Source of the DNA: Sulfuricurvum kujiense DSM 16994
GTDB lineage: Bacteria; Campylobacterota; Campylobacteria; Campylobacterales; Sulfurimonadaceae
Reading direction: 5' to 3'
Length of the DNA: 64,000 nucleotides
Assembly (NCBI RefSeq): GCF_000183725.1
Contig: NC_014762.1
Location: 2,356,001 to 2,420,000, forward strand
Numbering within the stretch: position 1 is the stretch's first letter; each line of letters opens with the position of its first letter. Below the pieces are notes generated by a model that saw only the letters and a list, made by a program, of their open reading frames with translations, was not told the DNA's origin and did not search any database. Position numbers and translations under genes: made by a program. This document shows positions 43,371 to 62,316 of the stretch, in pieces.

Positions 43371-43996
43371 TGTTTGAATTTCTATCCCTCATTACCAAAA
43401 AACGGTACTGGAAACTCCACAGTTTCATGATTAAAATCATTCTAAGATTTTACGGGATCAAAACCGGCAAAGGGTTTTACTGCGAAGGGATCCCCCATCT
43501 GAAGATAGGGGGAAAAGCCGAATTTATCCAAATCGGCGATAATGTTTCGATTTTCGGAAACATTGACCTCCGCAACCGGGAAAATGGGAAAATCATCATT
43601 GAAGACAACGTCTCGTTCGATCACGACGTACGGCTGGTATCCGCACGTGAGGGGACGATCCGAATCGGTTCAGGTTCTGCCATCGGCCCGTACACGATTA
43701 TGAACGGGGGAGGGAGCATTCTCATCGGCCAAAAATGCCTTTTTGCCAAAAGCATCTCGATCAACGCCAATGACCATCAGTTTGAAAAAAGCAGCTGTAT
43801 CCGTGATCAAGGGTTTACCTATGGGGACATTGTCATAGAAGACGACGTGTGGCTCGGTGCCAATGTCTGCATAAACAAAGGGGTTAAGATTCAAAAAGGG
43901 TCTATCATCGGTGCCAATGCCGTTGTAACCAAAAACACCGAAGAATACAGTATCAATGCCGGGGTCCCCTCCCGAATGATTGGCATGCGAACATGA
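43370..43996 (+). CDS. Left-handed beta-helix acyltransferase 1
   Basis: 208 residues from the ATG in TGATG, sharing one base with the preceding stop. Hexapeptide repeats from about residue 55 (GDNVSIFGNIDLRNRENGKIIIEDNVSFDHDV), catalytic His in NANDHQFEKSS and the terminal GAVVTKN / GVPSRMIG pattern (here GANAVVTKNTEEYSINAGVPSRMIG). O-acetyltransferase on a sugar is most likely. Confidence 0.87.
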   Translation: MFEFLSLITKKRYWKLHSFMIKIILRFYGIKTGKGFYCEGIPHLKIGGKAEFIQIGDNVSIFGNIDLRNRENGKIIIEDNVSFDHDVRLVSAREGTIRIGSGSAIGPYTIMNGGGSILIGQKCLFAKSISINANDHQFEKSSCIRDQGFTYGDIVIEDDVWLGANVCINKGVKIQKGSIIGANAVVTKNTEEYSINAGVPSRMIGMRT

Positions 43997-47920: not shown

Positions 47921-48903
47921 CAAAAATACTCTTTCGTGCCGACGCCAAACCCTCCATCGGAACCGGAGACCTGATATCTTTGCTGCACCTATCAAGATAT
48001 CTGGAGGGATTCGAGCTCTATTTTTTGACCCAGAAAACACAAGCGGCCTTAGGGATTATGGAGCGCTTCAATCCCAAAAATCTCTATTGGCTTGATGAAA
48101 ATGCAAGCCTGGAAGACGATATTACGGCCATCAACGCTTTAATCGAAAACGAAAATATCGCTATTGTTTTTTTTGAAATCACCGAACGAAAGCTCACCGA
48201 CTACACAGGGATCGATCCCTCCGCTATCAAAGTTTGCGTCAATTTCGACGGATATATTCCCGATGATATCGCGCTTCTGATCAACTGGGATGCAGCCGCG
48301 CACGACTATTACGTCCCAGAACGTTTCCCGCAGACAAAATTCCTTCTCGGACCGCGTTACGTCATTTTGCCCCAGCCGTTTTATGATAAAACTCTACGGG
48401 AAAGAAGGAATCCCTCCGTCCGTTCCGAGATCCTCATCGCAATGGGCGGAGCCGATGAACTCGATTTTACCGCACTAGTGTCCGAAGCGCTATCGGAGGG
48501 AAACTATCGCCTGAACATCATCGTCGGTGCGGGCTATGCCAACCACAAGAAACTCAAAAAGATGCTCGATGGGAAACAATGCCGCTACTCACTCAAACTA
48601 AACGTGCAAGATATGCTCAAAGAATATCTCTCCTGCGATTTCGCCATCGGAGCGGGAGGTCTGACCGCCAGCGAACTAGTTGCGTCACGAACCCCCTGCG
48701 CCCTCATCGCGACCTATGAACATCAAATCGCCCGATGCCGCTATTTCGCTCATGAAGGATGGGCTACGTATTTAGGCTACCGGACGTTTGACCCGCAGAA
48801 GCTTCGAGACGCGATTGAAACATTTACTCCCCGTTTCGGAGACACCCTCTTTAATACCATGGCGATTGCGGATGAGCTGCGGGCGCTGGGGAGGATAGGA
48901 TGA
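47917..48903 (+). CDS. PseG/SpsG-like protein with catalytic His replaced by Asp
   Basis: 328 residues from the ATG in ATGA. ILFRADAKPSIGTGD at the start is the PseG/SpsG nucleotide-sugar loop, which normally ends GxGH; here the His is Asp18. C-terminal half has IAMGGADELDFTALV, IIVGAGYANHKKL and FAIGAGGLTASELVASRTPCALIATYEHQ, typical of MurG-like GT-B folds. PseG cleaves UDP from a bacillosamine-type sugar before the NeuB-type step, which fits the adjacent gene, but the altered residue makes the activity doubtful. Confidence 0.72.
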   Translation: MTKILFRADAKPSIGTGDLISLLHLSRYLEGFELYFLTQKTQAALGIMERFNPKNLYWLDENASLEDDITAINALIENENIAIVFFEITERKLTDYTGIDPSAIKVCVNFDGYIPDDIALLINWDAAAHDYYVPERFPQTKFLLGPRYVILPQPFYDKTLRERRNPSVRSEILIAMGGADELDFTALVSEALSEGNYRLNIIVGAGYANHKKLKKMLDGKQCRYSLKLNVQDMLKEYLSCDFAIGAGGLTASELVASRTPCALIATYEHQIARCRYFAHEGWATYLGYRTFDPQKLRDAIETFTPRFGDTLFNTMAIADELRALGRIG

Positions 48904-49685
48904 ACATCGTAATAGAAACCGATAGCCGCGAGTCGGAAACGTTATACAACACCCATTTGCAAAGCGGCGAAGAATTTGCCTATTTTAAATTTCTTGAATG
49001 GGATACCGAATTTTTCAAGAAGCCCTCGTATGCGCTGGATATGTCCAAATCGAATTTTGAGCCCAGCGAAAAGGCTCAGAAAAAAATCGTAGACCATTTT
49101 AGCGACAGCTTTATTACGGCCAAAATCGATACCCGGCTCGACTATAAATACACCTATTTTTTACAACAATGCCATTTTTATTATGTCGATACCGAAATCA
49201 AATTGCAACACAAAGGCCTTCTCCCTGCCGCTCCCATAAACGGAGTGAGTATCGAAGATGTCTCATCCAATGAAAATCTGCCGATCCGTGAATTAGGGGA
49301 AGCCTTTAGCCTGACACGGTTTCACTGCGACCCGCACATATCTGCCGAGCAGGCGGACAGACTATGGGGTTCGTATTTACAGAATTTTACCCCTTCCGAT
49401 ACGAAAAAAATGTACCTTGCAAAAGTTGGCGGAGAGATTGCGGGAGTGATCTTGGCAAATCTCAACGAAACGGAAAATTTTTTGTTTTTCGTGGCGGTTC
49501 TCGAACCGTACCGCAGTCAAAAGATCGGCTCCGTTTTAATGGATCACGCCCTTCAGTCGCTGCAAAACAAAAAGCCCGTCTGTACCGGAACGCAAGCCAA
49601 AAATATTACGGCGCTGAATTTTTACATACGGAACGGATTTTCGAAAATCGTCCAAACCAATACGGTCATGCACTATTGGAGTTGA
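48900..49685 (+). CDS. GNAT-family N-acetyltransferase (WecD-like)
   Basis: 261 residues. N-terminal LEWDTEFFKKPSYAL resembles the WecD LEWDS-x-FFG start; the GNAT core has VGGEIAGVILANLNETENFLFFVAVLEPYRSQKIGSVLMDHAL (acetyl-CoA loop) and ALNFYIRNGFSKIVQTNTVMHYW. Likely N-acetylates the amino sugar produced by the DegT enzyme. ATGA overlap with the PseG-like gene. Confidence 0.8.
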   Translation: MNIVIETDSRESETLYNTHLQSGEEFAYFKFLEWDTEFFKKPSYALDMSKSNFEPSEKAQKKIVDHFSDSFITAKIDTRLDYKYTYFLQQCHFYYVDTEIKLQHKGLLPAAPINGVSIEDVSSNENLPIRELGEAFSLTRFHCDPHISAEQADRLWGSYLQNFTPSDTKKMYLAKVGGEIAGVILANLNETENFLFFVAVLEPYRSQKIGSVLMDHALQSLQNKKPVCTGTQAKNITALNFYIRNGFSKIVQTNTVMHYWS

Positions 49686-49709: not shown

Positions 49710-51206
49710 GTGGAAGACAGCCTTAAAAAACGCTACAGCATCAAACTGATCGCCAACGTCGTCAATGCGCTCATCAATGCCGTTTTAATCGCTATCGTCC
49801 CCAAAGCGTTAGGCCCTGTACCCTACGGACAGTTTGTTTTTGTGCAAGATTTTTTCGCCAAAATCATCGGCTTTCTGGATATGGGGAGTTCCACTGCTTT
49901 TTTTACGAAACTTTCGGCAAAACATACCCGCAAAGAACTGATCACCTTTTATTTCCTCTATTCGCTTGGCGTATTCTTCTTCCTCTCATCGGCTATCGTT
50001 TTGATTCACCGATCGAATTTGAATGCTGCCCTTTTGCCGGATATTCCTGCCGTCTACATCTACCTTGGGCTGATATACGGATTTCTGACATGGGTCACCC
50101 AGATTTTTATCAAAATATCGGATGCCTACGCCCTGACCGTTTCGGTCGAACTGATCAAAATCGGACACAGAATCGTTTCGCTTTTTTTTCTTTTTTACTG
50201 CGTCTATTTCACCCTCTTCGACCTGCAGACCTATTTTTACTATAACTACGCGGTGCTCGCCCTGTTTCTGATCGTCATCGGTTGGCTTTTTGTGCAAAAA
50301 AAGATTTTCGACCGACAGATACTCTCTTTCGATTTCAGTGTCAAAAAAATTGCAAAAGAGTTTATCGACTATTGCCATCCGTTGGTCGTATCGGGGGTTA
50401 TCGGAATGTCTATCGGCATTTTCGATATTTGGCTGCTGCAAACGATGGGCGGAAGCGAACAAATGGGATTTTACGGGCTAAGCTATTCTCTCGCGGCGAT
50501 GTGCTTTTTATTTACGAGTGCCATGACCCCCATTATTACCCGGGAATTCAGCAAATCCTACGAACATAAAAATATAGAACAGATGCAAAAGCTTTTTTAC
50601 CGCTACATACCGATGCTCTATTCGCTGGCAGCTTTTTTCGCCGTTTTTATCTCGTTTCAAAACGAAAATGTCCTGTTAATCTTCGCCGACGAAAAATTCA
50701 AAGAGGCGCACTGGGTACTCGTCGTTATGGCACTATACCCCATCCACCAAACCTACGGCCAGTTAAGCGGCTCGGTCTTCCATGCGACGGGGCAAACGAG
50801 CCGATATCGCAATATCGGCATTTCAAGCGCTCTTATCGGACTGTGTTTCTCCCTTCTGTTCATCTATTTTTTTGATCTGGGGGCGATGGGGCTAGCCTAT
50901 AAAATGGTATTGACACAACTCGTCGGCGTAACGGTTCAACTCTATTACAATTCCAAATTTTTGGCTCTCGATCTGCGCTATTTCCTTCGGCATCAAATCA
51001 CGGCTCTCCTTTTTTTCGTCCTGATCGCATATGCTGCGACCCGTCTCACCCCGATCGCAACGCCGCTCGCCTCTTTTCTCGTTTCAGGGTTTATATACAC
51101 GGTTTTGGTTATCATTTTTGGATATCTATTTCCATCCGTTTTCGCAACCACACACGATGAGATAAAAACGACGTTGGCAAAGGTTTTGAATGTCGCTAAA
51201 AAATAA
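49710..51206 (+). CDS. Wzx-type oligosaccharide flippase
   Basis: 498 residues, 12-14 membrane segments. Starts KKRYSIKLIANVVNALINAVLIAIVPKALGPVPYGQFVFVQDF, the N-terminal pattern of MOP-superfamily Wzx flippases, and continues with alternating hydrophobic segments. Would move an undecaprenyl-linked repeat unit across the inner membrane. GTG start with AAGGA about 8 bases upstream. The 24-base gap before it is the largest in the run from metK. Confidence 0.88.
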   Translation: MEDSLKKRYSIKLIANVVNALINAVLIAIVPKALGPVPYGQFVFVQDFFAKIIGFLDMGSSTAFFTKLSAKHTRKELITFYFLYSLGVFFFLSSAIVLIHRSNLNAALLPDIPAVYIYLGLIYGFLTWVTQIFIKISDAYALTVSVELIKIGHRIVSLFFLFYCVYFTLFDLQTYFYYNYAVLALFLIVIGWLFVQKKIFDRQILSFDFSVKKIAKEFIDYCHPLVVSGVIGMSIGIFDIWLLQTMGGSEQMGFYGLSYSLAAMCFLFTSAMTPIITREFSKSYEHKNIEQMQKLFYRYIPMLYSLAAFFAVFISFQNENVLLIFADEKFKEAHWVLVVMALYPIHQTYGQLSGSVFHATGQTSRYRNIGISSALIGLCFSLLFIYFFDLGAMGLAYKMVLTQLVGVTVQLYYNSKFLALDLRYFLRHQITALLFFVLIAYAATRLTPIATPLASFLVSGFIYTVLVIIFGYLFPSVFATTHDEIKTTLAKVLNVAKK

Positions 51207-51957
51207 ACTCAAAAATAACACCCTTACAATAGGCAGCTGGATCATGATCGGTAATCCTATGAGTGTAGAAGTTATGGCACTGGCCGGATTTGAATGGCTC
51301 GTAATAGATATCGAACATACGTCTGTTGATTTAGAAACAACCGAAAATCTGATTCGAACCATTCAAGCAAACGGTATGAAAGCACTGGTACGGGTCAGCA
51401 AAAACGAAGAGGTCATCATCAAACGCGTGCTGGATATGGGTGCCGATGGGATCATCGTCCCCATGGTATGCTCAAAAGAAGATGCTATCCAAGCGGTGGA
51501 TTATGCAAAATACCCTCCCGTAGGTAAAAGAGGTGTAGGACTTTACCGCGCCTCAAAATACGGTACGAAATTTGAAGACTATAAAAAATGGGTCAATGAA
51601 GAGCTTGTAATCATAGCCCAGATTGAGCATATCGAAGCGGTCAACAATATCGATGAAATCGTGCAAGTCGATGGGATCGACGGAACGATCATAGGGCCGT
51701 ATGATTTATCCGGTTCTATGGGATATCCCGGAGAATTCGAAAGAACAGATGTCAAAAGCGCCGTCAGCCGTGTACTCGATAGATGCAAAGCATACGGCAT
51801 CCCATCAGGGTTTCATGTCGTCGATACCGATCCTAAAAAATTGCAGGATAAAATAGACCAAGGATGTACTTTTTTAGCGTATGGGATCGATTACTTCTTT
51901 ATGAGAGATGCGGCAATAAGCGGCATGAATAGATTAAAACAAGAGATAAACACATGA
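51190..51957 (+). CDS. HpcH/HpaI-type class II pyruvate aldolase
   Basis: 255 residues. SLKNKLKNNTLTIGSWIMIGNPMSVEVMALAGFEWLVIDIEHTSVD is the HpaI/RhmA pattern; metal and substrate residues appear in LVRVSKNEE, GADGIIVPMVCSKEDA, GKRGVGLYRASKYG, IAQIEHIEAVNNIDEI (metal Glu) and GTIIGPYDLSGSMG (metal Asp). Such enzymes join or split pyruvate and an aldehyde to give 2-keto-3-deoxy acids. In a glycan locus beside a KdsB-like gene it probably makes or modifies a sugar acid. Confidence 0.85.
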   Translation: MSLKNKLKNNTLTIGSWIMIGNPMSVEVMALAGFEWLVIDIEHTSVDLETTENLIRTIQANGMKALVRVSKNEEVIIKRVLDMGADGIIVPMVCSKEDAIQAVDYAKYPPVGKRGVGLYRASKYGTKFEDYKKWVNEELVIIAQIEHIEAVNNIDEIVQVDGIDGTIIGPYDLSGSMGYPGEFERTDVKSAVSRVLDRCKAYGIPSGFHVVDTDPKKLQDKIDQGCTFLAYGIDYFFMRDAAISGMNRLKQEINT

Positions 51958-52730
51958 ATATTATTTCCATAATCCCTGCCCGAATGGGCTCAAGCCGTTT
52001 TCCGGGAAAACCGATGGCCGATATCTGCGGAATGCCGATGATCGGACATGTCTATAAACGGGTGAAAATGTCCAAGCGGCTCGATGAAGTCTACGTTGCC
52101 ACCTGTGATCAGGTGATTTTTGATTACATCACTTCCATCGGCGGCAAAGCGGTCATGACGAGCGACTGCCACGAACGGTGCAGCGACCGGTGCGCCGAAG
52201 CGATGCTCAAAATCGAAGCAACGAGCGGCGAGAAATGCGATATCATGGTCATGGTGCAAGGGGACGAGCCGCTGACGTTTCCTCAGATGATCGACGAAGC
52301 CATCGAACCGATGATTCAGGACAACTCTTTGGTCATCACCAATTTGGTCGCCGATTTGGAGAGCATTGAGGCGTTTGAGAATCCCAATGAAGTGAAAGTC
52401 GTCATGGATAAGCAAGGATTCGCACTCTACTTTTCTCGCGAACCGATCCCCAGCCGTAAAAAAGGGGTACTTGACGTCCCGATGAAAAAACAGGTCTGCG
52501 TCATCCCTTTCACACGCGATTTTTTACTTGAGTACAACGCGATGGAACCGACACCGCTGGAGATCATCGAATCGGTCGATATGATGCGCATCCTCGAAAA
52601 CGCTCAAAAAGTGAAGATGATCCCAACGCAGTACGTTACCAAAGCGGTCGATACGCAAGAGGATCTCAATACCGTCAATGCAATGATGAGCCAAGATCCT
52701 TTATTTGCAAAAGGGTATGCCGATGTTTAA
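51954..52730 (+). CDS. KdsB-like CMP-sugar-acid cytidylyltransferase
   Basis: 258 residues. IISIIPARMGSSRFPGKPMADICGMPMIGHVY is the CTP-binding start of CMP-Kdo synthetase; KAVMTSDCHERCSDRCAEAM replaces the housekeeping SDDH-x-SGTDR segment, and IMVMVQGDEPL supplies metal-binding Asp. The divergence suggests a ketosidic acid other than Kdo. ATGA overlap with the aldolase gene. Confidence 0.85.
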   Translation: MNIISIIPARMGSSRFPGKPMADICGMPMIGHVYKRVKMSKRLDEVYVATCDQVIFDYITSIGGKAVMTSDCHERCSDRCAEAMLKIEATSGEKCDIMVMVQGDEPLTFPQMIDEAIEPMIQDNSLVITNLVADLESIEAFENPNEVKVVMDKQGFALYFSREPIPSRKKGVLDVPMKKQVCVIPFTRDFLLEYNAMEPTPLEIIESVDMMRILENAQKVKMIPTQYVTKAVDTQEDLNTVNAMMSQDPLFAKGYADV

Positions 52731-53448
52731 ACGATGGGTCAAAAAGCTTTTTCTTCTCATCGATTTAGAGATTCAGAGAAAACCGAAAATACCGATCAAG
52801 CAGTTTGAGAGTGATGAAAACTTTACAGCTCTCTACTCTCTGGCACAACGCAAAACCCAAATGGAAACAAGCGACAACCTCTCACGCCGTGAGCGTCATT
52901 ACGTCCTTAACCAGCTCATAGAGAAAGCCCCGATGAACGGGGAGGTTGCCGAATGCGGCTGCTGGCGCGGGCTCTCTGCTTATCAAATCGCTTACAAAAT
53001 GGCTAAAAGAGGTTTCCAAAACCGTTTTATCATTTTTGACTCTTTCGAAGGACTTTCCGATTTTGAAGAAGCCGATATCCCTTTGGGCGGAATCAAAGAT
53101 CAAGAAGCCCGAAAAAAGGAATTCGCCTGCGGCGAAGATATCGTTAGAAATAATCTCAAAGACTTTAATTTTATCGACTACAAAAAAGGGTGGATTCCCG
53201 AACGTTTCCCCGAAACAAGCGATCGAAGTTTCGGTTTTGTCCATATTGACGTCGATATGTATCAACCGATTTTGGATGCATTGGGATTTTTCTATCCCCG
53301 AATGCTCAAAGGTGGAATAATCGTATTGGATGACTACGGTTTTACCTATTTTCCCGGAGCTAAAAAAGCAACGGATGAATTCATGAAAGATAAAAATGAT
53401 TTCTTCCTTGCTTTAGCGTCCGGTCAAGCTTTTATTATCAAATCGTAA
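52723..53448 (+). CDS. TylF/MycF-like O-methyltransferase
   Basis: 241 residues from the ATG with AGGG 7 bases upstream, overlapping the previous gene by 8 bases. NGEVAECGCWRGLSAYQIA is the SAM site, IIFDSFEGLSDFEEAD and FVHIDVDMYQPILDALGFFYPRMLKGGIIVLDDYGF are the TylF/MycF signatures with metal-binding Asp residues. O-methylation of a sugar is likely. Confidence 0.87.
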   Translation: MFKRWVKKLFLLIDLEIQRKPKIPIKQFESDENFTALYSLAQRKTQMETSDNLSRRERHYVLNQLIEKAPMNGEVAECGCWRGLSAYQIAYKMAKRGFQNRFIIFDSFEGLSDFEEADIPLGGIKDQEARKKEFACGEDIVRNNLKDFNFIDYKKGWIPERFPETSDRSFGFVHIDVDMYQPILDALGFFYPRMLKGGIIVLDDYGFTYFPGAKKATDEFMKDKNDFFLALASGQAFIIKS

Positions 53449-53451
53449 AAG

Positions 53452-54024
53452 ATGATCCTAAAAATCCTGTTCGAACTCTATATCGGTTTTCTCGGATCAA
53501 TTCCGACCTCGTTGGGTGTTCGAATACGCTATTACGGCTATAAAACACTTTTTAAAAAGACGGACGGTTTTTTTCGCATCGATCGAGGTGTCACCATCAC
53601 CGATTTTAAAAATATCGAGTTAGGTAAAAACATAAATATCATGAAAAACAGTTATCTTTATGCTCATGACGATGGCGTATTGGTGATCGGCAACAATTTT
53701 TCAATGAACACTAATACCCAACTCGGGGCCAGCGGAGGGAAAATCGTTATCGGCGACGATTGTTCCATCGGTCCGAATTGTGTTTTAAGAGCTGCCGATC
53801 ATGAATTTTCGAATCCCGATATCCCTTTCAACCAACAAGGGCACAAATACGGTGAAATCATCATCGAAAACGATGTCTGGATCGCATCAAACTGCGTGAT
53901 AACCGCCAATACTGCCATCGGGACAGGATCTGTTATCGCAGCCGGAAGCGTCGTAACAAAAGACGTAGAGTCTTTTTCCGTCATGGGCGGCGTCCCGGCA
54001 AAACTGATCAAAAAAAGAGGATAA
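53452..54024 (+). CDS. Left-handed beta-helix acyltransferase 2
   Basis: 190 residues. Hexapeptide repeats start near residue 45 (GVTITDFKNIELGKNINIMKNSYLYAHDDGVLVIGNNFSM), with catalytic His in RAADHEFSN and the terminal GAVV-type motif IAAGSVVTKDVESFSVMGGVPAKLIKK. Sugar O- or N-acetyltransferase. Related to acyltransferase 1 of this locus but not close. Confidence 0.87.
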   Translation: MILKILFELYIGFLGSIPTSLGVRIRYYGYKTLFKKTDGFFRIDRGVTITDFKNIELGKNINIMKNSYLYAHDDGVLVIGNNFSMNTNTQLGASGGKIVIGDDCSIGPNCVLRAADHEFSNPDIPFNQQGHKYGEIIIENDVWIASNCVITANTAIGTGSVIAAGSVVTKDVESFSVMGGVPAKLIKKRG

Positions 54025-54963
54025 ATGGCAACCTATCTTATTACCGGAATCGCCGGTTTCATCGGATCTTCGATTGCAAAAGCATTGGAAAAACAGGGGC
54101 ATAAGCTCATTGGGATCGATAACCTCCTCACCGGAAACCGCACCAATCTTCCATCCACCTGTACTTTTATCCACGGCGATATTGCGGATCAATCGGTATA
54201 TGAGTCGCTGCGCGGGAAAAAAATCGACGCCATCTTGCATCTGGCCGCCCAAAGTTCAGGAGAAATCAGTTTCGAAAAGCCCCAATACGATGTTTTGACC
54301 AATACACTGGGAACCCTCAATCTCCTCAATTTCGCTGTTGAAGAGGGGATCGGCCGATTTATCTACGCTTCGACGATGAGCATATACGGGGATGTGGACG
54401 ACAAACCCATCCGCGAAAATCAGGCGAAAAATCCAAAATCGTATTACGGGATCACAAAATTGGCGGCGGAACAGTATGTACGTGTTTTTTCCGATCGTCT
54501 TAATACGACATCTTTTCGCCTGTTCAACGTATATGGACCGGGTCAAAATATGGCCAATCTGAAACAAGGGATGGTGAGTATCTATCTGGCTTACTTTATG
54601 CGCAACGAGCCGGTAATCGTCAAAGGGTTCAAAGAGCGTTACCGGGATCTAACCTACATCGATGACGTCGTGGATGTCTGGACGGCATCCATCGACAACC
54701 CTCTAACGTATGGAAAAACCTACAATCTCGCGACAGGGAAAAAGACGACGGTAGAAGCGCTGTTAAACGAACTCAAAACAGCGTGGGGATCGCCTGAATA
54801 TCCGATTTACTTTACGGAGGGGACTCCGGGAGACCAATTCGGAATCTACGCCGATATTACGCAGCTGCAAAACGATTTGGGGTGGGAGCCAAAAGTCTCG
54901 CTGAGCGAGGGGATTCACCATTTCGTCAATTGGGTAAAAGGGGAAATGCATGCCGATATGTAG
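54025..54963 (+). CDS. NAD-dependent sugar epimerase/dehydratase 1
   Basis: 312 residues, extended SDR. TGIAGFIGSSIAKAL is the nucleotide-binding loop; LHLAAQSSGEISFEKP, Ser in YASTMSIYGD and YYGITK give the Ser-Tyr-x3-Lys catalytic set. C-terminal region with RYRDLTYIDDVVD fits a UDP-sugar 4-epimerase or related enzyme. Starts directly after the acyltransferase stop. Confidence 0.87.
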   Translation: MATYLITGIAGFIGSSIAKALEKQGHKLIGIDNLLTGNRTNLPSTCTFIHGDIADQSVYESLRGKKIDAILHLAAQSSGEISFEKPQYDVLTNTLGTLNLLNFAVEEGIGRFIYASTMSIYGDVDDKPIRENQAKNPKSYYGITKLAAEQYVRVFSDRLNTTSFRLFNVYGPGQNMANLKQGMVSIYLAYFMRNEPVIVKGFKERYRDLTYIDDVVDVWTASIDNPLTYGKTYNLATGKKTTVEALLNELKTAWGSPEYPIYFTEGTPGDQFGIYADITQLQNDLGWEPKVSLSEGIHHFVNWVKGEMHADM

Positions 54964-55858
54964 AATTTGTAAGGCGGAAGAGAACCTGCAATCGGTTCGG
55001 GCCGATTATGTGTTCGGCGGAAGCGAACACTATAAATTCTGGGAATGCCGTTCGTGTAAAGCGATCTATATGGACCCGAAACTCACCCCCGAAGAAGAGA
55101 AACATTTTTATAAAAAAGAGTTTGAAAAATTTATGGCGCAGCGTGTCGGCGATCACAGAGACTGGAGCAATGCCGAAAACCACATCAAAACCAATCAAGA
55201 CCAGGTGGAACGGAGATGGAAGTTTTTATCGCCGCATCTCAAACCGGGTTTGGAACTGCTTGAAATCGGCTGCTCAAGCGGATTCATGCTCGATGCTTTC
55301 CACACGGCCGGGTTGCAGTGTACCGGAGTCGAACCCTCCGGAGAGTTTTTGGAATTTCTCCAAAAAAAAGGGTATCGCGCCTATGAGTCCCTCGAAGAAC
55401 TGACAAAAAACGATCCGAAACAATACGACCTGATTAGCCATTTTTTCGTCTTTGAACATATTGCCGATCCTTTCGCTTTTTTGCAAGAAACCTACGGGCT
55501 TCTCAAAGAGGGAGGGGTGATCATCGCCGAAATCCCCTCCGCCACCGATCCGCTGACCTCTTTGTATACGATTCCCTCATTTGAAAAATTTTATTGGTCG
55601 ATCGCACACCACTATTATTACACCCCCGATTCGCTGCGTTACATTTTGGACACGCTAGGGTACAACTACGAGCTGCTCCCCGAACAACGTTATGATCTCT
55701 CCAATCATATGACGTGGATGATGGACGGAAAACCGGGAGGTCAAAACCGTTATAACGATATTTTCAGCCCCGAAACGTTGCAATCGTATCGGGAGGACTT
55801 AAAACGCCATTGGCGGTGCGATACGGTCATCTTGAAAATCTACAAGGAGAGCGTATGA
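54950..55858 (+). CDS. Class I SAM methyltransferase with N-terminal zinc ribbon
   Basis: 302 residues. Two CxxC pairs at the start (CRICK and CRSCK) form a small zinc ribbon typical of sugar C-/O-methyltransferases of this type; LLEIGCSSGFMLDAF is SAM motif I and FVFEHIADPFAFLQETYGLLKEGGVIIAEIPS motifs II-III. Overlaps the epimerase gene by 14 bases. Confidence 0.85.
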   Translation: MPICRICKAEENLQSVRADYVFGGSEHYKFWECRSCKAIYMDPKLTPEEEKHFYKKEFEKFMAQRVGDHRDWSNAENHIKTNQDQVERRWKFLSPHLKPGLELLEIGCSSGFMLDAFHTAGLQCTGVEPSGEFLEFLQKKGYRAYESLEELTKNDPKQYDLISHFFVFEHIADPFAFLQETYGLLKEGGVIIAEIPSATDPLTSLYTIPSFEKFYWSIAHHYYYTPDSLRYILDTLGYNYELLPEQRYDLSNHMTWMMDGKPGGQNRYNDIFSPETLQSYREDLKRHWRCDTVILKIYKESV

Positions 55859-56775
55859 AAATCATCGCTCTCTCCCCTTCTTTTTCAAAAAATGAAACGC
55901 TTCAAAAAGAATTTTTGACCTTTTTCCCGGACGGTATCCTTAATACGGAGGGGAAGCGGTTTTCAGAACCGGAACTCATTGCACATATCCACGATGCCGA
56001 TGCGATCATCGTCGGGCTTGAAGAGATCAACGATCAAATCCTCAGCGCCTGCCCGAATCTTAAAATCATTTCGAAATACGGTGTCGGGCTCAACAATATC
56101 GATTTGGATGCTTGCCGAAAACGGGGAGTGCAAATCGGATGGACCGGAGGGGTAAACCGCCTCTCGGTCGCCGAAATGGCGCTAGGCTATATGCTGATGC
56201 TCTGCCGGAATCTCTACATCACCTCCAATGAGCTCAAAAACGGTATCTGGAACAAATCCGGCGGTTTTCAACTTAGTGGAAAAACAGTCGGTATTATCGG
56301 TGTCGGCCATATCGGTAAAGAGCTCATCCGCCTTTTACAACCGTTCGGGTGCACGATTTTAGTCAACGACATCATCGATCAATCCGGTTATTACAAAAAG
56401 CATAACCTCATCGAAGCCACCAAAGAAGCGCTCTATGCGCAATCCGATATCGTCACCATCCATACCCCGCTGGACGATACGACGAACAAAATGATCAACC
56501 GAGCCGTCTTCGAACAGATGAAATCCAGCGCATTCATCCTCAACAGTGCACGTGGTGGTATAATTGACGAAAATGATTTAAAATTTGCGTTGCAAAATCG
56601 TTTAATTGCCGGAGCTGCAATCGATGCCTATATTGAAGAGCCTCCGAGTGATACGGAACTTTTAACATTGCCGAACCTCATCTGTACGCCGCATATCGGG
56701 GGTAATGCTATCGAAGCGGTAGAAGCGATGGGGTTCAGCGCTATTCACCATGTAAGAGAGTATTTTAATTTATGA
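55855..56775 (+). CDS. D-2-hydroxyacid dehydrogenase
   Basis: 306 residues from the ATG in ATGA. NAD loop GVGHIGKELIRLL, catalytic Arg in LNSARGGIIDE, Glu in AYIEEPPSD and His in CTPHIGGNAIEA follow the phosphoglycerate-dehydrogenase family. In a glycan locus, with an aldolase and a KdsB-like gene, the likely substrate is a sugar-derived 2-hydroxy or 2-keto acid rather than 3-phosphoglycerate. Confidence 0.88.
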   Translation: MKIIALSPSFSKNETLQKEFLTFFPDGILNTEGKRFSEPELIAHIHDADAIIVGLEEINDQILSACPNLKIISKYGVGLNNIDLDACRKRGVQIGWTGGVNRLSVAEMALGYMLMLCRNLYITSNELKNGIWNKSGGFQLSGKTVGIIGVGHIGKELIRLLQPFGCTILVNDIIDQSGYYKKHNLIEATKEALYAQSDIVTIHTPLDDTTNKMINRAVFEQMKSSAFILNSARGGIIDENDLKFALQNRLIAGAAIDAYIEEPPSDTELLTLPNLICTPHIGGNAIEAVEAMGFSAIHHVREYFNL

Positions 56776-57656
56776 AAAAAGTGGTTATCTTCGGAGGAAG
56801 CGGTTTTTTAGGAAGCTACGTCGCAGACGAGTTTACGCGCCGCAAGTATGATGTTGTTATCGCCGATATCGCCCCATCCCCCTATCTCAAACCCAAACAG
56901 ACGTTTGTACGGGTCAATATCATGGAGATGGGTGAGGTCGAACAGGCAATAGCAGGGGCCGCTTTGGTTTATAATTTTGTCGCTATCGCCAATCTCGATG
57001 AAGCGATCCATAAGCCGGTTCATACCATGTCAATTAATGTGATGGGTAATCTCAATATTCTCGAAGCATGCCGTCAAAACGGCAAAATCGAACGTTTTGT
57101 TTATGCCAGCAGTGCGTACGCTCTCAGCAGTGAGGGTTCGTTTTATGGAATCAGCAAACACTCCTCCGAAAAACTGACCGATGAATATTACAAACGCTAT
57201 GGTCTAAAATATACCGTTATCCGCTACGGCTCGCTCTACGGCGAACGGGCGAGTCATAACAATTACATCTACAATCTTCTCTCGGACGCTCTGCAAAACG
57301 GAACCTTGCACTATAGCGGAGACGGAGAAGATATCCGCGAATATATCCATGCCGCCGATGCGGCCAAACTTTCCGTCGATATCATCGAAGATGCCCAATA
57401 CGAAAACGAACACATCATCCTGACGGGAATCGAAAAACTCAAACGGATCGAGCTGTTGACGATGATCAACGAGATCATGCAAAACAGCTTGACAATCACC
57501 CAGCATAACACCGAGAATATGGGACATTATAAAATCACCCCGTATGCATTCCACCCCAGTGCGGCTAAAAAGCTGGTTGCCAACCCCTATATCGATTTAG
57601 GGCAGGGGCTTCTCGAATGCATTCAGTTCATTCATAAAGAGCTCCATAGCGAATGA
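56772..57656 (+). CDS. NAD-dependent sugar epimerase/dehydratase 2
   Basis: 294 residues, extended SDR. VVIFGGSGFLGSYVADEF, FVYASSAYALSSEGSFYGISKHSSEKL with the Tyr-x3-Lys pair, and YGERASHNNYIYNLL. Overlaps both neighbours by ATGA. Confidence 0.87.
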   Translation: MKKVVIFGGSGFLGSYVADEFTRRKYDVVIADIAPSPYLKPKQTFVRVNIMEMGEVEQAIAGAALVYNFVAIANLDEAIHKPVHTMSINVMGNLNILEACRQNGKIERFVYASSAYALSSEGSFYGISKHSSEKLTDEYYKRYGLKYTVIRYGSLYGERASHNNYIYNLLSDALQNGTLHYSGDGEDIREYIHAADAAKLSVDIIEDAQYENEHIILTGIEKLKRIELLTMINEIMQNSLTITQHNTENMGHYKITPYAFHPSAAKKLVANPYIDLGQGLLECIQFIHKELHSE

Positions 57657-58312
57657 TTTTTCTCTCTTATACCCTCAACTCTTCGACACCGTCCTACGGA
57701 AACCGCAATCGGTTTGGAATCGACAAAAAAAGCGCCATTACACAAGGGGATGTCGCCAACGATAGCACGATTACAACAACAGTGCACATTGGAACCCATT
57801 TAGATATGCCGTACCATTTTTACGAAAACGGTCAAACGATCAGTGCGTATAATGCCGATTTTTTTTCTTTTTCGAATATCTTGTTTTTAGAGATACGCCC
57901 CGAGGCTCTGGTGATCAAAGATGAACTTATCCGTCAGCTTTCCCTCATCGACGACCTGGGATACGACCTCCTCCTCGTCAAAACCGGTGCATGCGCTCAT
58001 CGGGCCGAAGAGACCTATTGGAGCCAAAATTACGGATTTCATCCCGACGTGTACACGGTTTTGACCGAGCGTTTCCCCTCAATCCGTGTTTTCGGCTTTG
58101 ATACCATCTCCGTTTCCAGTTTTCAAGACAGAACCATCGGCAGGGAAGCGCACAGACGGTTTTTAAATCCCGATCATCCCGTATTGCTGCTCGAAGATAT
58201 GGATTTACGCTGTGTCGATGCATCAAGTATATTCACTTCGTTCATTATCGCCCCCCTGCGAATCGAACACTGCGACGGCATCCCCTGTACCGTCATGGCA
58301 ACCGTCGTATGA
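57653..58312 (+). CDS. Cyclase / kynurenine-formamidase-like metal hydrolase
   Basis: 219 residues. VHIGTHLDMPYHF is the HxGTHxDxPxH metal motif of the cyclase (KynB-like) family. The rest of the fold is visible as LLLVKTGACAHRAEETYW, FGFDTISVSS and FLNPDHPVLLLEDMDL. Members hydrolyse amides, lactones or ring amides. Tryptophan catabolism genes are absent, so the substrate is presumably a lactone or formyl-amino sugar in glycan synthesis. Confidence 0.82.
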   Translation: MIFLSYTLNSSTPSYGNRNRFGIDKKSAITQGDVANDSTITTTVHIGTHLDMPYHFYENGQTISAYNADFFSFSNILFLEIRPEALVIKDELIRQLSLIDDLGYDLLLVKTGACAHRAEETYWSQNYGFHPDVYTVLTERFPSIRVFGFDTISVSSFQDRTIGREAHRRFLNPDHPVLLLEDMDLRCVDASSIFTSFIIAPLRIEHCDGIPCTVMATVV

Positions 58313-58926
58313 TACGAAATATCCTTTTTGACTTCGACGGCGTCATCCTCGACAGTATGAAAATCAAAGGGGACGGATTCGTCGAACTGTTTAAAGCGTA
58401 TCCCGAAAGAGAGCGCAACGAGCTCGAAAAATACCATTACGCAAACGGCGGAGTGTCGCGCTTTGCAAAAATACGCTATTTTTTTACTCACCTCATTCAT
58501 CAGGAGATATCCGAAACCGAGGTCGAATGTCTCGCGAACCGATTTGGAGAGATTATTGCCCAAAAGCTTTTCGATCCGGCCAATCTGATTCCCGAAACCG
58601 TTGCATTCATCGAACACCATTGTGCCCATTATAACTGCCACATCGTCTCCGGTGCTGAAGAGCGGGAGTTGAAAAATTTGTGTAACCATTTTAAAATCGA
58701 TCATTATTTTAAATCGATACATGGTTCACCGACCCCAAAACCCGAACTGGTCCGTGCGGTCTTGGAACATAATCATTATCACCAAGACGACACGATCCTG
58801 ATCGGCGACAGCATCAACGACTACCATGCGGCACAAGCGAATGGGATCCGTTTTTATGGCTATAATAATGGGGAGCTCAAACCGTTTGGGTGTTATCTTG
58901 AATCGTTTAACGGATTTCGGCCGTGA
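58309..58926 (+). CDS. HAD-superfamily phosphatase
   Basis: 205 residues. Motif I ILFDFDGVILDS, motif II IVSGA, Lys in TPKPELVRAVL and motif IV ILIGDSINDYHAA. Phosphoglycolate-phosphatase-like HAD enzyme with a helical cap. May play the KdsC-type dephosphorylation role for the sugar acid made by the neighbouring genes. ATGA at its start; its end overlaps the next GTG. Confidence 0.87.
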   Translation: MIRNILFDFDGVILDSMKIKGDGFVELFKAYPERERNELEKYHYANGGVSRFAKIRYFFTHLIHQEISETEVECLANRFGEIIAQKLFDPANLIPETVAFIEHHCAHYNCHIVSGAEERELKNLCNHFKIDHYFKSIHGSPTPKPELVRAVLEHNHYHQDDTILIGDSINDYHAAQANGIRFYGYNNGELKPFGCYLESFNGFRP

Positions 58927-60440
58927 CACCGCAAGAGCTCGAACATAGCTATCAGCGAGAAAAGCCCCTTTTTCATCACTATCTCGATTCCATCAAAAAA
59001 AGAGCCCCCCGTGACATCTTTACCATCCTCAATGCGACGCTGACGAAAAACCCTTATGCTACAGTGTTTCCAAAACATTTTTTCTCAAAACAGACTCCCG
59101 CTTCGAATATTTTCTGGGTATTCATTAAAAATACTATCCTGTTTTACGGCAAAAACTTCTATGTGTTGTTCACCTACCTCATCAGCTATCTCGTATACAA
59201 AATCTATTTCACCAAAGAACGCCGCTCTAAGCCGACCACCCTCATCGATGTTTTCGCCCTTGTCGATACCGTCAATCGTAACGGAACATTCAAAGATTCT
59301 TATTTTACGGATCTTTATGATGTTTTTGAAAAATATTCCCGGCCCTACACCCTCCTCCTCCGATTTTACGGTGCGGGAAAAAATCCGTTCAAACTGATCC
59401 CTTTTTTCAAAATTATCAATCAGGACCGTCGGGATTTTCTTTTGGAATTCGAGTTGCTTACCCTACGCGATTTTTTAGAACTGGCGATGCTCTTTTTGGC
59501 GTATCCGTTTAAAACACTCCGCCTTTGGCAAAAACCTCACAATCTGGATGACCGAATCTTCAACCACGCCTTGGTAAGTGACATCAAAAACGTCAGTTTC
59601 GAATCCTTCAGCCGATACGTTTTAGGCAAAAATGTGGCCAACATTCCGACGGTAGAAAAAATATTCTCGTGGAGTGAATTTCAGGCCGTCGAAAGAGGTT
59701 TCAATTTCGGAATCCGCAAAAACAACCCGAACATTGAACTCGTCGGCTGCCAGTTTTTTCTCAATTATGAAACCTATTTTAACGCCTATGTCGACGATCT
59801 CGATTTTGAGATGCTCTCATCGCCGCATAAAGTTTTGGTCAACGGCAGCCACTATATTCTCCATCGCAAACATCTCCGATATGAGACGGGGGGGTCGTTG
59901 CGCTATAAAGAGCTTTTTCATTTCGACGGCATCAAAGAAGAAAAAAATATCATCATCCTCGGCTCTTATATCGAATCCGACACCCGCTATATGTTGGAAA
60001 GTGTCCCTCGTTTTTCCGACGTTATATTCAAAAACCACCCTGCCGTTGCCATCCAACGGCTCTATCCATTGCCCTCAAATGTCATCCTCTCCAACGAATC
60101 GATCTATACGCTGTTCGCCCATGCCAAAATGGTCATCGGCACCGCATCGGGGACTTTGGTCGAAGCGGTTGCATCGGGCGTATCCGTGATCATCGTCGCC
60201 AGCCAAAGCAATTTGACGGCCAATCCCCTTGTCGAACATGGCAAAGGGGAGATATGGGAGATCGCATTCAGTAAAGATGATATCCCGATGCTATATAATA
60301 AACTGCTCAATTTTAGACAAGAAAACAGATCAAGAATCCAAGAAATCGCGAAGTGGTATAAAAATAATTTTTTTATTGAACCGACCGAAGCAACTATATG
60401 CAAAGTATTTGAATTAAAGCAGGAGGCAGCCAAGGAATGA
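58923..60440 (+). CDS. Putative GT-B-like transferase of the glycan locus
   Basis: 505 residues, GTG start overlapping the HAD stop (GTGA). A hydrophobic segment at about 65-95 (FWVFIKNTILFYGKNFYVLFTYLISYLVYKIYF) suggests membrane association. The C-terminal third has NIIILGSYIESDTRYMLESV, FKNHPAV and AKMVIGTASGTLVEAVASGVSVIIV, a nucleotide-sugar-binding pattern of GT-B polysaccharide transferases. Family not recognised. The start of the protein is unusual, without a standard GT N-terminal domain. Confidence 0.5.
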   Translation: MTPQELEHSYQREKPLFHHYLDSIKKRAPRDIFTILNATLTKNPYATVFPKHFFSKQTPASNIFWVFIKNTILFYGKNFYVLFTYLISYLVYKIYFTKERRSKPTTLIDVFALVDTVNRNGTFKDSYFTDLYDVFEKYSRPYTLLLRFYGAGKNPFKLIPFFKIINQDRRDFLLEFELLTLRDFLELAMLFLAYPFKTLRLWQKPHNLDDRIFNHALVSDIKNVSFESFSRYVLGKNVANIPTVEKIFSWSEFQAVERGFNFGIRKNNPNIELVGCQFFLNYETYFNAYVDDLDFEMLSSPHKVLVNGSHYILHRKHLRYETGGSLRYKELFHFDGIKEEKNIIILGSYIESDTRYMLESVPRFSDVIFKNHPAVAIQRLYPLPSNVILSNESIYTLFAHAKMVIGTASGTLVEAVASGVSVIIVASQSNLTANPLVEHGKGEIWEIAFSKDDIPMLYNKLLNFRQENRSRIQEIAKWYKNNFFIEPTEATICKVFELKQEAAKE

Positions 60441-61213
60441 AGGTATTGTTACTAGCCGGCGGGTTTGGGACCAGACTCAGCGAAGAGACCGATATCCGTC
60501 CCAAACCGATGGTCGAAATCGGAGGAAAACCGATCCTTTGGCACATTATGAAGATTTATTCCACTTACGGATTTAACGAATTTGTAGTTTTGCTCGGATA
60601 CAAAGGGTATTACATCAAAGAATATTTTGCGAACTATTTTCTCCACCAAAGCGATGTGACCATAGATCTGAAAAACAATAAAATGGAAATTCTGAACAAT
60701 TCAAGCGAACCGTGGAAAGTGACGCTATTGGATACCGGGCTCAATGCCATGACGGGATCACGGATCAAAAAAGCGCAAAAATTCGTGGGCGACGAACCGT
60801 TCATGCTCACCTACGGAGACGGCGTGTCGGATATCAATATCGAGGAACTTCTCCGGTTTCACCGAACACACGGGAAAACGCTCACCATGATGTCTTCTCA
60901 GCCGGCAGGCCGTTTCGGCGCATTGAATATTGACAGTGACGGCCGTGTTTCAAAATTTTTGGAGAAACCAAAAGGGGACGGGAACTGGGTCAATGCAGGG
61001 TTTTTTGTTTGCGAACCCAACGTTTTTGATTACATTGACGACGATGAGACGGTCGTCTTCGAACAAGAACCGCTGCAAAAACTCGCCGAAGAGGGGGAGA
61101 TCTTTACCTATCAGCATCAAGGCTTTTGGAAACCGATGGACAGCCTGAAAGACAAAAACGACCTCAACCACTTATGGGATCACGGTATGGCTCCGTGGAA
61201 AATTTGGAACTAA
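60437..61213 (+). CDS. rfbF: Glucose-1-phosphate cytidylyltransferase
   Basis: 258 residues. LLAGGFGTRLSEETDIRPKPMVEIGGKPILWHIMK is the RfbF/DdhA start; YGDGVSDINIEELLRFH and GFWKPMDSLKDKNDLNHLW complete the family pattern. Makes CDP-glucose from glucose-1-phosphate and CTP. ATGA overlap with the transferase gene; first gene of the CDP-deoxyhexose module. Confidence 0.95.
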   Translation: MKVLLLAGGFGTRLSEETDIRPKPMVEIGGKPILWHIMKIYSTYGFNEFVVLLGYKGYYIKEYFANYFLHQSDVTIDLKNNKMEILNNSSEPWKVTLLDTGLNAMTGSRIKKAQKFVGDEPFMLTYGDGVSDINIEELLRFHRTHGKTLTMMSSQPAGRFGALNIDSDGRVSKFLEKPKGDGNWVNAGFFVCEPNVFDYIDDDETVVFEQEPLQKLAEEGEIFTYQHQGFWKPMDSLKDKNDLNHLWDHGMAPWKIWN

Positions 61214-61215
61214 GC

Positions 61216-62316
61216 ATGTTCAAGAATATTTATAACGGAAAAAAAGTTCTAATCACCGGGCATACGGGCTTTAAGGGGAGTTGGCTGAGTATCTGGCTGC
61301 TCAAACTCGGTGCCAAAGTGGTAGGCATCTCCAAAGACATACCGACAAAGCCTTCGATGTTTGAGGAGTTAGAGATTGAGCGGCAAATCACCCATTATCA
61401 AACCGATATCCGGGACCTTCCGGCGGTGCAAAGCATCATCTCCGCCGAACATCCTGATTTCGTCTTTCATCTTGCGGCTCAGCCGATCGTTTCACTCTCG
61501 TATACCGACCCTATCGAAACACTCTCCTCCAACATCATGGGGACGGCCAATGTTTTAGAAGCGCTGAGACTATCCAATCACCCCTGTACAGCCATTATCA
61601 TCACGAGCGACAAAGCCTACGACAACGTTGAGCAGGTTTGGGGATACCGCGAAGACGATAAAATGGGGGGAAAAGATATCTACAGCGGAAGCAAAGGTGC
61701 CGCCGAGCTTGTCATCAAATCGTACTTTCACTCCTTTTTCCGTTCGCGCGAGTCTCAGGTCAAAATCGCAATCGGCAGAGCCGGCAATGTGATCGGTGGG
61801 GGAGATTGGGCGCAAGATCGGATCGTTGTCGACTGTATGCGCTCATGGAGCCAAAATGAAAAAGTTGAAATTCGAAGCCCCGACGCCACCCGTCCGTGGC
61901 AACACGTTTTAGAGCCTCTCAGCGGATACCTTCAGTTGGGGGCGGAACTGCATCTCAATGTCTCTTTGCATGGGGAAGCCTTTAATTTCGGTCCCCGGGC
62001 GGAACAAAACCATACGGTCAAACAGCTGCTCGAAGATCTGAGCCGATATTGGCACTTCGATACTGCCATGGACGCGTTTACCGTAACCGACCATATCCCT
62101 TTTCACGAAGCAGGCCTTTTAAAACTCAACTGCGACAAGGCCCTTTTTTCTCTGAAATGGCACTCGACGCTCCGTTATGAGCAAACCATCCGCTTCACAA
62201 GCGAATGGTATTACGATTTTTATCGCACCAAAGGCGATATGTATCTCAAAACCCTTCAACAAATCGAAGAGTACGAACACTTGGCAACAAAGGATTCACT
62301 GCAATGGACGGAGTGA
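61216..62316 (+). CDS. rfbG: CDP-glucose 4,6-dehydratase
   Basis: 366 residues from ATG (MFKNIYNGKKVLITGHTGFKGSWLSIWLLKLGA), two bases after rfbF. HLAAQPIVSLSY, ITSDKAYDNVEQVWGYREDDKMGG and IYSGSKGAAELV (Tyr-x3-Lys) are RfbG/DdhB signatures, and SPDATRPWQHVLEPLSGYL is characteristic. Converts CDP-glucose to CDP-4-keto-6-deoxyglucose. Confidence 0.95.
   Translation: MFKNIYNGKKVLITGHTGFKGSWLSIWLLKLGAKVVGISKDIPTKPSMFEELEIERQITHYQTDIRDLPAVQSIISAEHPDFVFHLAAQPIVSLSYTDPIETLSSNIMGTANVLEALRLSNHPCTAIIITSDKAYDNVEQVWGYREDDKMGGKDIYSGSKGAAELVIKSYFHSFFRSRESQVKIAIGRAGNVIGGGDWAQDRIVVDCMRSWSQNEKVEIRSPDATRPWQHVLEPLSGYLQLGAELHLNVSLHGEAFNFGPRAEQNHTVKQLLEDLSRYWHFDTAMDAFTVTDHIPFHEAGLLKLNCDKALFSLKWHSTLRYEQTIRFTSEWYYDFYRTKGDMYLKTLQQIEEYEHLATKDSLQWTE

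What the first reader, a model, noticed from the sequence alone, without database searches (positions are those of the whole stretch)
51190..58926. Possible undescribed pathway to a CMP-activated sugar acid
A contiguous block combines an HpaI-type pyruvate aldolase, a divergent KdsB-like cytidylyltransferase, two methyltransferases, an acyltransferase, two SDR enzymes, a D-2-hydroxyacid dehydrogenase, a cyclase-family hydrolase and a HAD phosphatase. Together with the NeuB-like synthase just upstream, it could build a 2-keto-3-deoxy acid by aldolase condensation rather than the Kdo route, then tailor and activate it. I know of no named pathway with this gene set.
Basis: inference. Interest (0 to 1): 0.7.

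Follow-up and report, generated by a model that had tools for sequence, protein, structure and literature searches.

The report
Aldolase-based route to CMP-sugar acid
This stretch of an O-antigen-type gene cluster is a conserved, mobile set of enzymes that probably builds an unidentified acidic surface sugar by joining pyruvate to an aldehyde and then tagging it with CMP, a shortcut unlike the known routes to Kdo and sialic acids.

Summary
Aldolase A lies within 1.8 kb of KdsB-like B in 25 of 26 other B-clade loci; G-H-I-J (2-hydroxyacid dehydrogenase, SDR, cyclase-type hydrolase, HAD) are all present in 13 of 19 with enough sequence. The methyl/acyltransferase genes between vary. In five phylum genomes the same A adjoins a PseF/NeuA-like cytidylyltransferase instead, four with YhcH, a family with a sialic-acid anomerase that feeds an aldolase. 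A second aldolase type (DmpG/HMGL-like) is fused or adjacent to KdsB/NeuA-likes elsewhere. B keeps CTP/Mg residues but in 26 of 26 rows lacks a sugar-side signature fixed in 27 of 27 ordinary KdsBs; the five phylum genomes with B also have an ordinary KdsB. Best reading: pyruvate aldolase, HAD phosphatase and CMP-synthetase replace KdsA-KdsC-KdsB to make a CMP-activated 2-keto-3-deoxy sugar acid other than Kdo. Chain length, acceptor and the roles of G, H, I are unknown; I found no biochemistry. The upstream NeuB is not part of the unit. Nine searches of an open-access library listed no description (lists capped).

The parts
51190..51957 (+). A: HpaI-type class II pyruvate aldolase (core)
   Evidence: PF03328 137 bits; H43, R68, E146, D172 invariant in 18 aligned sequences, aligned to H50, R75, E153, D179 of 1dxe (numbers counted by me from the printed alignment)
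51954..52730 (+). B: KdsB-like CMP-sugar-acid synthetase with altered sugar-side residues (core)
   Evidence: PF02348; TIGR00466 164.3 bits; CTP/Mg residues kept, H180Q G182C Y184I L208V E209D Q210M relative to ordinary KdsB
52717..53448 (+). C: TylF-type methyltransferase (variable tailoring)
   Evidence: PF05711 76 bits; ORF cluster of 3, window included
53452..54024 (+). D: hexapeptide acyltransferase (variable tailoring)
   Evidence: PF00132; no hit in several loci that have A, B, G-J, e.g. L025, L026, L042
54025..54963 (+). E: extended SDR, GalE-like (variable)
   Evidence: PF01370 178 bits; ORF cluster of 11, window and a duplicate contig included
54950..55858 (+). F: SAM methyltransferase (variable tailoring)
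   Evidence: PF13489; ORF cluster of 8, window and a duplicate contig included
55855..56775 (+). G: D-2-hydroxyacid dehydrogenase, SerA-like (core)
   Evidence: PF02826 173 bits; best solved chains are phosphoglycerate dehydrogenases
56772..57656 (+). H: extended SDR with intact Ser and YxxxK (core)
   Evidence: PF01370; S113, Y125, K129 invariant in 21 aligned sequences
57653..58312 (+). I: cyclase/kynurenine-formamidase-like metal hydrolase (usual, not universal)
   Evidence: PF04199; HxGTHxDxPxH invariant in 17 aligned sequences; no counterpart in L113 or annotated in L140
58309..58926 (+). J: HAD phosphatase (core)
   Evidence: PF13419 74 bits; in one ORF with I in L029; directly after the aldolase-KdsB fusion in L037
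58923..60440 (+). K: GT-B-fold enzyme, probable glycosyltransferase, usually right after J; donor unresolved
   Evidence: no Pfam hit; AF2 pLDDT 86.6; GT-B matches, VIA Z up to 14.7
49710..51206 (+). Flippase-like (Wzx-type) gene just upstream, overlapping A; name inferred from the sequence, not scanned against a family library
   Evidence: homologue in 19 of 26 other B loci (one of them inverted and distant)
60437..62316 (+). Separate CDP-sugar route: glucose-1-phosphate cytidylyltransferase and CDP-glucose 4,6-dehydratase
   Evidence: TIGR02623 407 bits, TIGR02622 476 bits

Best explanation
The block is the sugar-acid module of an O-antigen-type locus. A condenses pyruvate with an aldehyde (probably phosphorylated) to a 2-keto-3-deoxy aldonic acid; J removes the phosphate; the open chain closes to the ring; B couples it to CMP; C-F add strain-specific methyl/acyl groups; K or a neighbouring transferase uses the CMP-sugar. 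Thus aldolase/HAD/CMP-synthetase do the jobs of KdsA/KdsC/KdsB with pyruvate in place of PEP. G, H and I (oxidation, oxidation or epimerisation, hydrolysis) prepare the acceptor aldehyde or remodel the chain. Shown here: gene content, conservation, intact catalytic residues, altered B residues, exchange of the partner enzymes. Inferred: every reaction, their order, and the product.
For: A within 1.8 kb of B in 25 of 26 non-duplicate loci other than the window. Of 397 phylum genomes, 10 have A at 67% identity or more and all 10 have a CMP-sugar synthetase gene beside it: 5 B, 5 PseF-like c29 (only the L033 copy of c29 was scanned against libraries); the 7 with an HpaI at 31-39% showed no hit to B or c29 in the fetched stretch. 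4 of the 5 c29 loci carry a YhcH-family gene; E. coli YhcH opens cyclic ulosonic acids for an aldolase (PMC8141875, abstract and passages). A DmpG/HMGL-type aldolase is fused to a KdsB-like domain in L037, adjoins a KdsB- or NeuA-like ORF in 7 of 7 opened loci (7 of 20 genomes with a match), and forms an aldolase-KdsB-HAD trio on Leisingera plasmids (2 of 3 opened). Acuticoccus plasmid: HpaI - acylneuraminate cytidylyltransferase - phosphoglycerate dehydrogenase - HAD - oxidoreductase in a row; it is the first-listed plasmid hit for both A and H. Tree: 27 ordinary KdsBs and 36 aldolase-associated KdsB-likes split at 98/98. The 5 phylum genomes with B each have an ordinary KdsB as well. L039 has a CST-I-type sialyltransferase gene next to G.
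Against: No enzyme, metabolite or glycan data. B passes the curated kdsB cut-off. 6 of 19 long B loci lack some or all of G-H-I-J. I is missing from some modules. L065 has B, G, H, J but no A found. One of the ten A genes (G173) has an in-frame TGA. The 26 loci are close relatives found with peptides of B itself, so they are not independent trials. G249, which carries the fusion, gave no other KdsB hit at E<=1e-25, so there the fused enzyme could still serve Kdo. Not all HMGL-associated KdsB-likes have the B-type residues: L144 and L146 keep H180 and G182, and L137, L138, L142, L143 and L039 keep Y184. K's fold does not point to a CMP donor. Sequence does not decide whether A uses pyruvate or another 2-keto acid.
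Confidence: 0.62

Rival explanations
1. B is a second CMP-Kdo synthetase that activates Kdo (or a Kdo variant) for the O-unit, fed by the genome's ordinary Kdo pathway; A has an unrelated task.
For: B scores above the kdsB cut-off; second KdsBs for capsule Kdo exist (a kpsE/kpsF capsule context on a plasmid).
Against: The signature H-x-G-x-Y / L-E-Q is fixed in 27 of 27 ordinary KdsBs and absent in 26 of 26 B-clade rows; A lies near B in 25 of 26 loci; A keeps a CMP-synthetase neighbour when the KdsB-like is replaced by a PseF-like one; two capsule-type KdsB loci opened on plasmids carry kdsA and/or kpsF.
Confidence: 0.15
2. B activates the nonulosonic acid made by the upstream NeuB/PseG pair; A and G-J make something else.
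For: NeuB- and PseG-like genes end 3.3 and 2.3 kb before A; 10 of 26 other loci have some NeuB.
Against: Of 18 loci with at least 7.5 kb upstream, 1 has the same NeuB, 9 another at 31-37%, 8 none.
Confidence: 0.08
3. A with G, H, I, J makes a small hydroxy-acid (for example a glyceric or deoxytetronic acid type acyl group) used by acyltransferases to decorate an amino sugar; B is a partner only by position.
For: 2-hydroxyacid dehydrogenase, cyclase-type hydrolase and an acyltransferase in the block.
Against: Acyltransferases belong to the variable part; the constant partner of A is a CMP-sugar synthetase of either of two subfamilies, and a different aldolase is fused to one.
Confidence: 0.1

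Closest known systems
Kdo pathway (KdsD, KdsA, KdsC, KdsB)
   Same: Three-carbon unit added to an aldehyde, HAD phosphatase, KdsB-type CMP transfer (pathway recalled); CTP/Mg residues of B conserved (residues from PMC3149649 sections 6 and 7)
   Different: Pyruvate aldolase instead of PEP-dependent KdsA; a different HAD subgroup from KdsC (recalled); altered sugar-side residues in B; extra dehydrogenases and hydrolase
Nonulosonic acid pathways (NeuB/NeuA, PseI/PseF)
   Same: CMP-activated ulosonic acid; the c29 variant uses a PseF-like synthetase (below the PseF cut-off); YhcH family in c29 loci
   Different: No dedicated NeuB in the conserved unit
HpaI/GarL/RhmA catabolic aldolases
   Same: Family and catalytic residues
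   Different: Below the curated cut-offs; polysaccharide context
DmpG-type 4-hydroxy-2-oxovalerate aldolases
   Same: Best named models for the fused or adjacent aldolases of L037, L137, L141 and L145
   Different: About 530 aa and paired with CMP-synthetases; Pfam PF00682, not the PF03328 of A (the two were not compared directly)

Membership tests
KdsB (CMP-Kdo synthetase) | Curated NCBIfam kdsB score | tested here: met
   TIGR00466 164.3 vs cut-off 155.2 bits
KdsB (CMP-Kdo synthetase) | CTP and Mg-A residues (P8, R10, R15, K19, D95, D219 in A. aeolicus, PMC3149649) | tested here: met
   P8 R10 R15 K19 D104 D233 kept in all 26 B-clade rows printed
KdsB (CMP-Kdo synthetase) | H-x-G-x-Y and L-E-Q residues of the C-terminal, Kdo-binding domain, fixed in ordinary KdsBs | tested here: not met
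   27 of 27 ordinary vs 0 of 26 B-clade rows; that these residues touch Kdo is recalled, the structural paper was not held
KdsB (CMP-Kdo synthetase) | Turnover of Kdo | not testable with these tools
   needs an enzyme assay
HpaI-type aldolase (PF03328) | Domain and catalytic His/Arg/Glu/Asp | tested here: met
   (roles of the residues recalled)
HpaI-type aldolase (PF03328) | Named activity (HpaI, GarL or RhmA equivalog) | tested here: not met
   207.7/368.8, 200.8/393, 197/406.75, 167/441 bits vs cut-off
Kdo pathway | PEP-dependent KdsA encoded in the block | tested here: not met
   none of the 10 proteins matches such a family; other loci were not scanned for kdsA
Nonulosonic acid pathway | NeuB-type synthase conserved with the synthetase | tested here: not met
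   same NeuB in 1 of 18 loci with enough upstream sequence, another in 9, none in 8
CMP-ulosonate glycosyltransferase (K) | Structural match to a CMP-sugar transferase | tested here: inconclusive
   GT-B fold; listed rows are UDP-GlcNAc epimerases and UDP/TDP-type transferases, TagF among them
PF04199 cyclase/KynB-like hydrolases (I) | HxGTHxDxPxH metal motif | tested here: met
   (role of the motif recalled)

The most novel reading that the evidence does not exclude
There is a general, undescribed 'aldolase route' to CMP-activated sugar acids: at least two different pyruvate-aldolase families (HpaI-like PF03328 and DmpG/HMGL-like PF00682) have each been paired, by linkage or fusion, with non-Kdo KdsB-likes or NeuA/PseF-likes and often an HAD phosphatase, in Campylobacterota, Alphaproteobacteria, Desulfovibrionaceae MAGs and possibly a Micrarchaeota MAG, giving a new family of surface ulosonic acids distinct from Kdo and nonulosonic acids.
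Probability: 0.5. Interest if true: 0.78.

Novelty: new variant of a known kind. Interest (0 to 1): 0.62.

Why it matters
As far as I recall, characterised biosynthetic routes to CMP-activated ulosonic acids in bacteria use PEP-dependent synthases (KdsA or NeuB families). A route through reversible pyruvate aldolases would mean that many genes auto-annotated 'KdsB' or 'acylneuraminate cytidylyltransferase' in polysaccharide loci handle unknown acidic sugars, and would give a compact enzyme set for making them. The claim is directly testable with three purified proteins.

Tried and rejected
NeuB/PseG as part of the unit: rejected on distribution. Kdo as B's substrate: disfavoured by residues, tree and second KdsB. 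K as a proven CMP-sugar transferase: the fold search gave only GT-B; no sialyl- or Kdo-transferase is among the printed rows (50 each), which does not exclude them. K profile against solved sequences: one meaningless hit. RNA families (gathering threshold) and tRNAs in the window: none. KdsB-like in phages: 7 records, best identity 36.9%, not followed. Plasmid KdsB hits opened (4 of 81 records: H1, H3, H6, H9): kdsA and/or kpsF beside it in two, housekeeping surroundings in two. Two further HpaI plasmid hits opened as controls (rows 2 and 5 of the list, of 758 records: H39, H42): transport and sugar-catabolic surroundings, no cytidylyltransferase annotated. H26, a short HMGL homologue on a Desulfobaculum plasmid, has no annotated cytidylyltransferase beside it (transketolase and RfbH-like genes instead), a case against a universal pairing. 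The cyclase I has one weak plasmid hit (26%). Literature: ten searches were answered; nine on the topic and one on the organism (92). No listed title describes an aldolase route to CMP-sugars, but lists were capped (12 of 1,808, 15 of 32, 12 of 14) and most subscription papers are not held. Seen beyond listings: PMC3149649 (outline, passages, section 6, and section 7 part 1 of 2), PMC8141875 (abstract, passages), PMC12409901 (passages). A specific order for G-H-I (sugar oxidation, lactone opening, C2 oxidation) was considered and left as speculation.

Rows dropped or handled before counts: L046 and L057 duplicate L026 and L028 and were left out; L060 (incomplete B) is but not in the tree; H_L143a (no CTP-site residues in its alignment) was dropped from the tree; L067-L072 were put in the ordinary set after I had seen their residues, though the tree places them there too; three ordinary KdsBs (L077, L079, L083) were read wrongly and recovered. 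The L033 aldolase (genome G173, one in-frame TGA) was not used in A1. In one search I required at least 35% coverage, 38% identity for H and 30% for G. Of 20 of 249 genomes with an HMGL match I opened the 7 best (9 of 24 places); the shorter, weaker hits were not examined.
Full report
What is there. The window lies on a 2,574,824-base contig of a 2.82 Mb, five-contig genome. From recall this size fits the Sulfuricurvum kujiense chromosome; the closest named relative of B is in a Sulfuricurvum MAG (86%, L042). All ten ORFs of the finding exist with the families named, on one strand and mostly overlapping, between a flippase-like gene and K, followed by glucose-1-phosphate cytidylyltransferase and CDP-glucose dehydratase genes. 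I call them A (HpaI-type aldolase), B (KdsB-like), C (TylF methyltransferase), D (hexapeptide acyltransferase), E (SDR1), F (methyltransferase), G (2-hydroxyacid dehydrogenase), H (SDR2), I (cyclase-type hydrolase), J (HAD), K (GT-B).

Conservation as a unit. A scan of species genomes, with peptides of B, found 31 relatives: 24 at 56% identity or more and 7 at 32-41%. Mapping the window's proteins on these and on the phylum loci shows one recurrent order: flippase-like - A - B - variable cassette - G - H - I - J - K - CDP-sugar genes. Over 26 non-duplicate B-clade loci other than the window (4, 22), A lies within 1.8 kb upstream of B in 25 (with H in between in L061-L064); of 19 with at least 7.9 kb downstream, 13 have all of G, H, I, J. 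The six others: L028, L055 and L056 show none of G-J, L059 and L061 lack I, L064 has only H. The loci are related to each other, so this is conservation, not 26 independent trials. The cassette between B and G differs from locus to locus: FkbM, TylF or other methyltransferases, acyltransferases, SDRs, or a radical-SAM/SPASM plus SDR pair. So A, B, G, H, J and usually I are the core, and C-F are tailoring.

Sporadic distribution. In 397 genomes of the phylum, B at 78% identity or more is in 5 (one further at 43%), I in 16 and A in 17 at the cut-offs used. Related blocks occur in records labelled Endonucleobacter (L050), Gammaproteobacteria (L059), Flavobacteriaceae (L058), Desulfovibrio or Desulfovibrionaceae (L061-L064; A at 34-38%), SAR86 (L065, no A found) and, at 31-45%, a Micrarchaeota MAG (L066). 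MAG labels can be wrong; L058 in particular may be a binning error.

The partner enzyme can be exchanged, the pairing stays. Ten of the 397 genomes have A at 67% or more (one copy, G173, with an in-frame TGA). In five B is the neighbour. In the other five (L030, L031, L033, L035, L113) the neighbour is c29, a 224-residue protein; the L033 copy is CTP_transf_3 like B, but its best named model is PseF (85.9 bits, below its cut-off) rather than KdsB. Four of the five blocks (L030, L033, L035, L113) also carry a YhcH/YjgK/YiaL-family gene; none was seen in L031. E. coli YhcH was shown to open cyclic Neu5Ac and KDN so that an aldolase can use them (PMC8141875, abstract and passages). A member of that family beside an aldolase and a CMP-synthetase fits interconversion between the open chain made by A and the ring taken by the synthetase. 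The seven genomes with an HpaI at 31-39% showed no B or c29 hit in the fetched stretches.

A second aldolase family is paired in the same way. In G249 one 783-residue ORF joins an HMGL-like domain (residues 3-253) to a KdsB-like domain (539-743), followed by J (L037). The HMGL part is nearest to 4-hydroxy-2-oxovalerate aldolase models, and its best solved chain is a 'putative aldolase' (3dxi), then 4-hydroxy-2-oxovalerate aldolases. Of 249 phylum genomes 20 had a homologue; I opened the 7 best, and in all 7 a KdsB-like or c29-like ORF lies beside it by BLAST at E 1e-6. Three Leisingera plasmids carry aldolase and 'KdsB' side by side; in the two opened an HAD gene follows. Against: a short homologue on a Desulfobaculum plasmid has no annotated cytidylyltransferase nearby. 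L029 has I and J in one ORF. L039 has a CST-I-type sialyltransferase gene next to G, L040 a CTP_transf_3 gene next to G, and L032 a divergent HpcH/HpaI protein next to G.

Hold-out. In the plasmid collection, not used to define the unit, the first-listed record for A (44%, of 758 records) and for H (38%, next 27.6%, of 1,049 records) is the same Acuticoccus plasmid, where the annotation reads aldolase/citrate lyase, acylneuraminate cytidylyltransferase, phosphoglycerate dehydrogenase, HAD, NAD(P)-dependent oxidoreductase in a row. No cyclase gene is annotated there. The two further HpaI hits that I opened are in other surroundings.

Is B a CMP-Kdo synthetase? By curated score, yes. By residues, probably not. 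The CTP and Mg ligands given for A. aeolicus KdsB (PMC3149649, sections 6 and 7) are kept. But positions 180, 182, 184, 208, 209 and 210 of the window protein are fixed differently in 27 of 27 ordinary KdsBs and 26 of 26 B rows; 100 and 255 nearly so. Ordinary KdsB reads H-x-G-x-Y and L-E-Q, B reads Q-x-C-x-I and V-D-M. They lie in the C-terminal domain, which the paper assigns to Kdo binding and dimer formation; direct contact with Kdo is recalled, the Kdo-complex paper was not held. The ten other aldolase-associated rows are mixed: several read K-Q-V-C-V with Y184 kept, L144 and L146 keep H180 and G182; none has the full ordinary signature. A maximum-likelihood tree of 63 rows separates 27 ordinary KdsBs from these 36 (98/98); the B clade is 100/100; long branches make the finer order unsure. 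The five phylum genomes with B each have an ordinary KdsB too; G249, with the fusion, gave no other hit there.

Is A a working aldolase? H43, R68, E146 and D172 are invariant in 18 sequences and align with H50, R75, E153 and D179 of 1dxe, a 2-dehydro-3-deoxy-galactarate aldolase; their catalytic roles are recalled. H keeps Ser-Tyr-Lys and I its HxGTHxDxPxH motif.

Mechanism. Most likely: A adds pyruvate to an aldehyde, J dephosphorylates, B activates with CTP; C-F decorate; K or another transferase uses the product. The trio aldolase - synthetase - HAD on Leisingera plasmids is the best argument that these three suffice and parallel KdsA-KdsC-KdsB. G, H and I remain unassigned: two oxidoreductases and a hydrolase could make the acceptor aldehyde or remodel the acid. 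K models well (pLDDT 86.6) as GT-B but its donor is open.

Novelty. Searches of the held open-access library listed no title describing such a route (calls under Tried and rejected); lists were capped and most subscription papers are not held, so this is weak evidence of absence. I class it as a new variant of a known kind.

Noticed in passing
L113:6018-7914: An FRG-domain gene and a Macro-domain gene (a possible defence or toxin-related pair) sit inside the c29-type block, between YhcH and the HAD gene.
   Followed up: no
L143:3139-16997: Several CMP-synthetase-like ORFs and three HMGL-type aldolases close together; some ORF ends encode short glycine runs, as poly-G tracts would, suggesting phase variation.
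   Followed up: no
L039:12437-13324: CST-I-type (PF06002) sialyltransferase gene beside G in a locus with two cytidylyltransferase-family genes.
   Followed up: partly
window 46856-49685: NeuB-like, PseG-like and WecD-like acetyltransferase genes look like a separate nonulosonic-acid set; the same NeuB and PseG recur only in L053 (65% and 49%) among 26 loci.
   Followed up: partly
window 43993-46859: Two ORFs of 365 and 590 aa before the NeuB-like gene, not assigned here.
   Followed up: no
L058: A MAG labelled Flavobacteriaceae carries a full block 78% identical at B; possible transfer or binning error.
   Followed up: no
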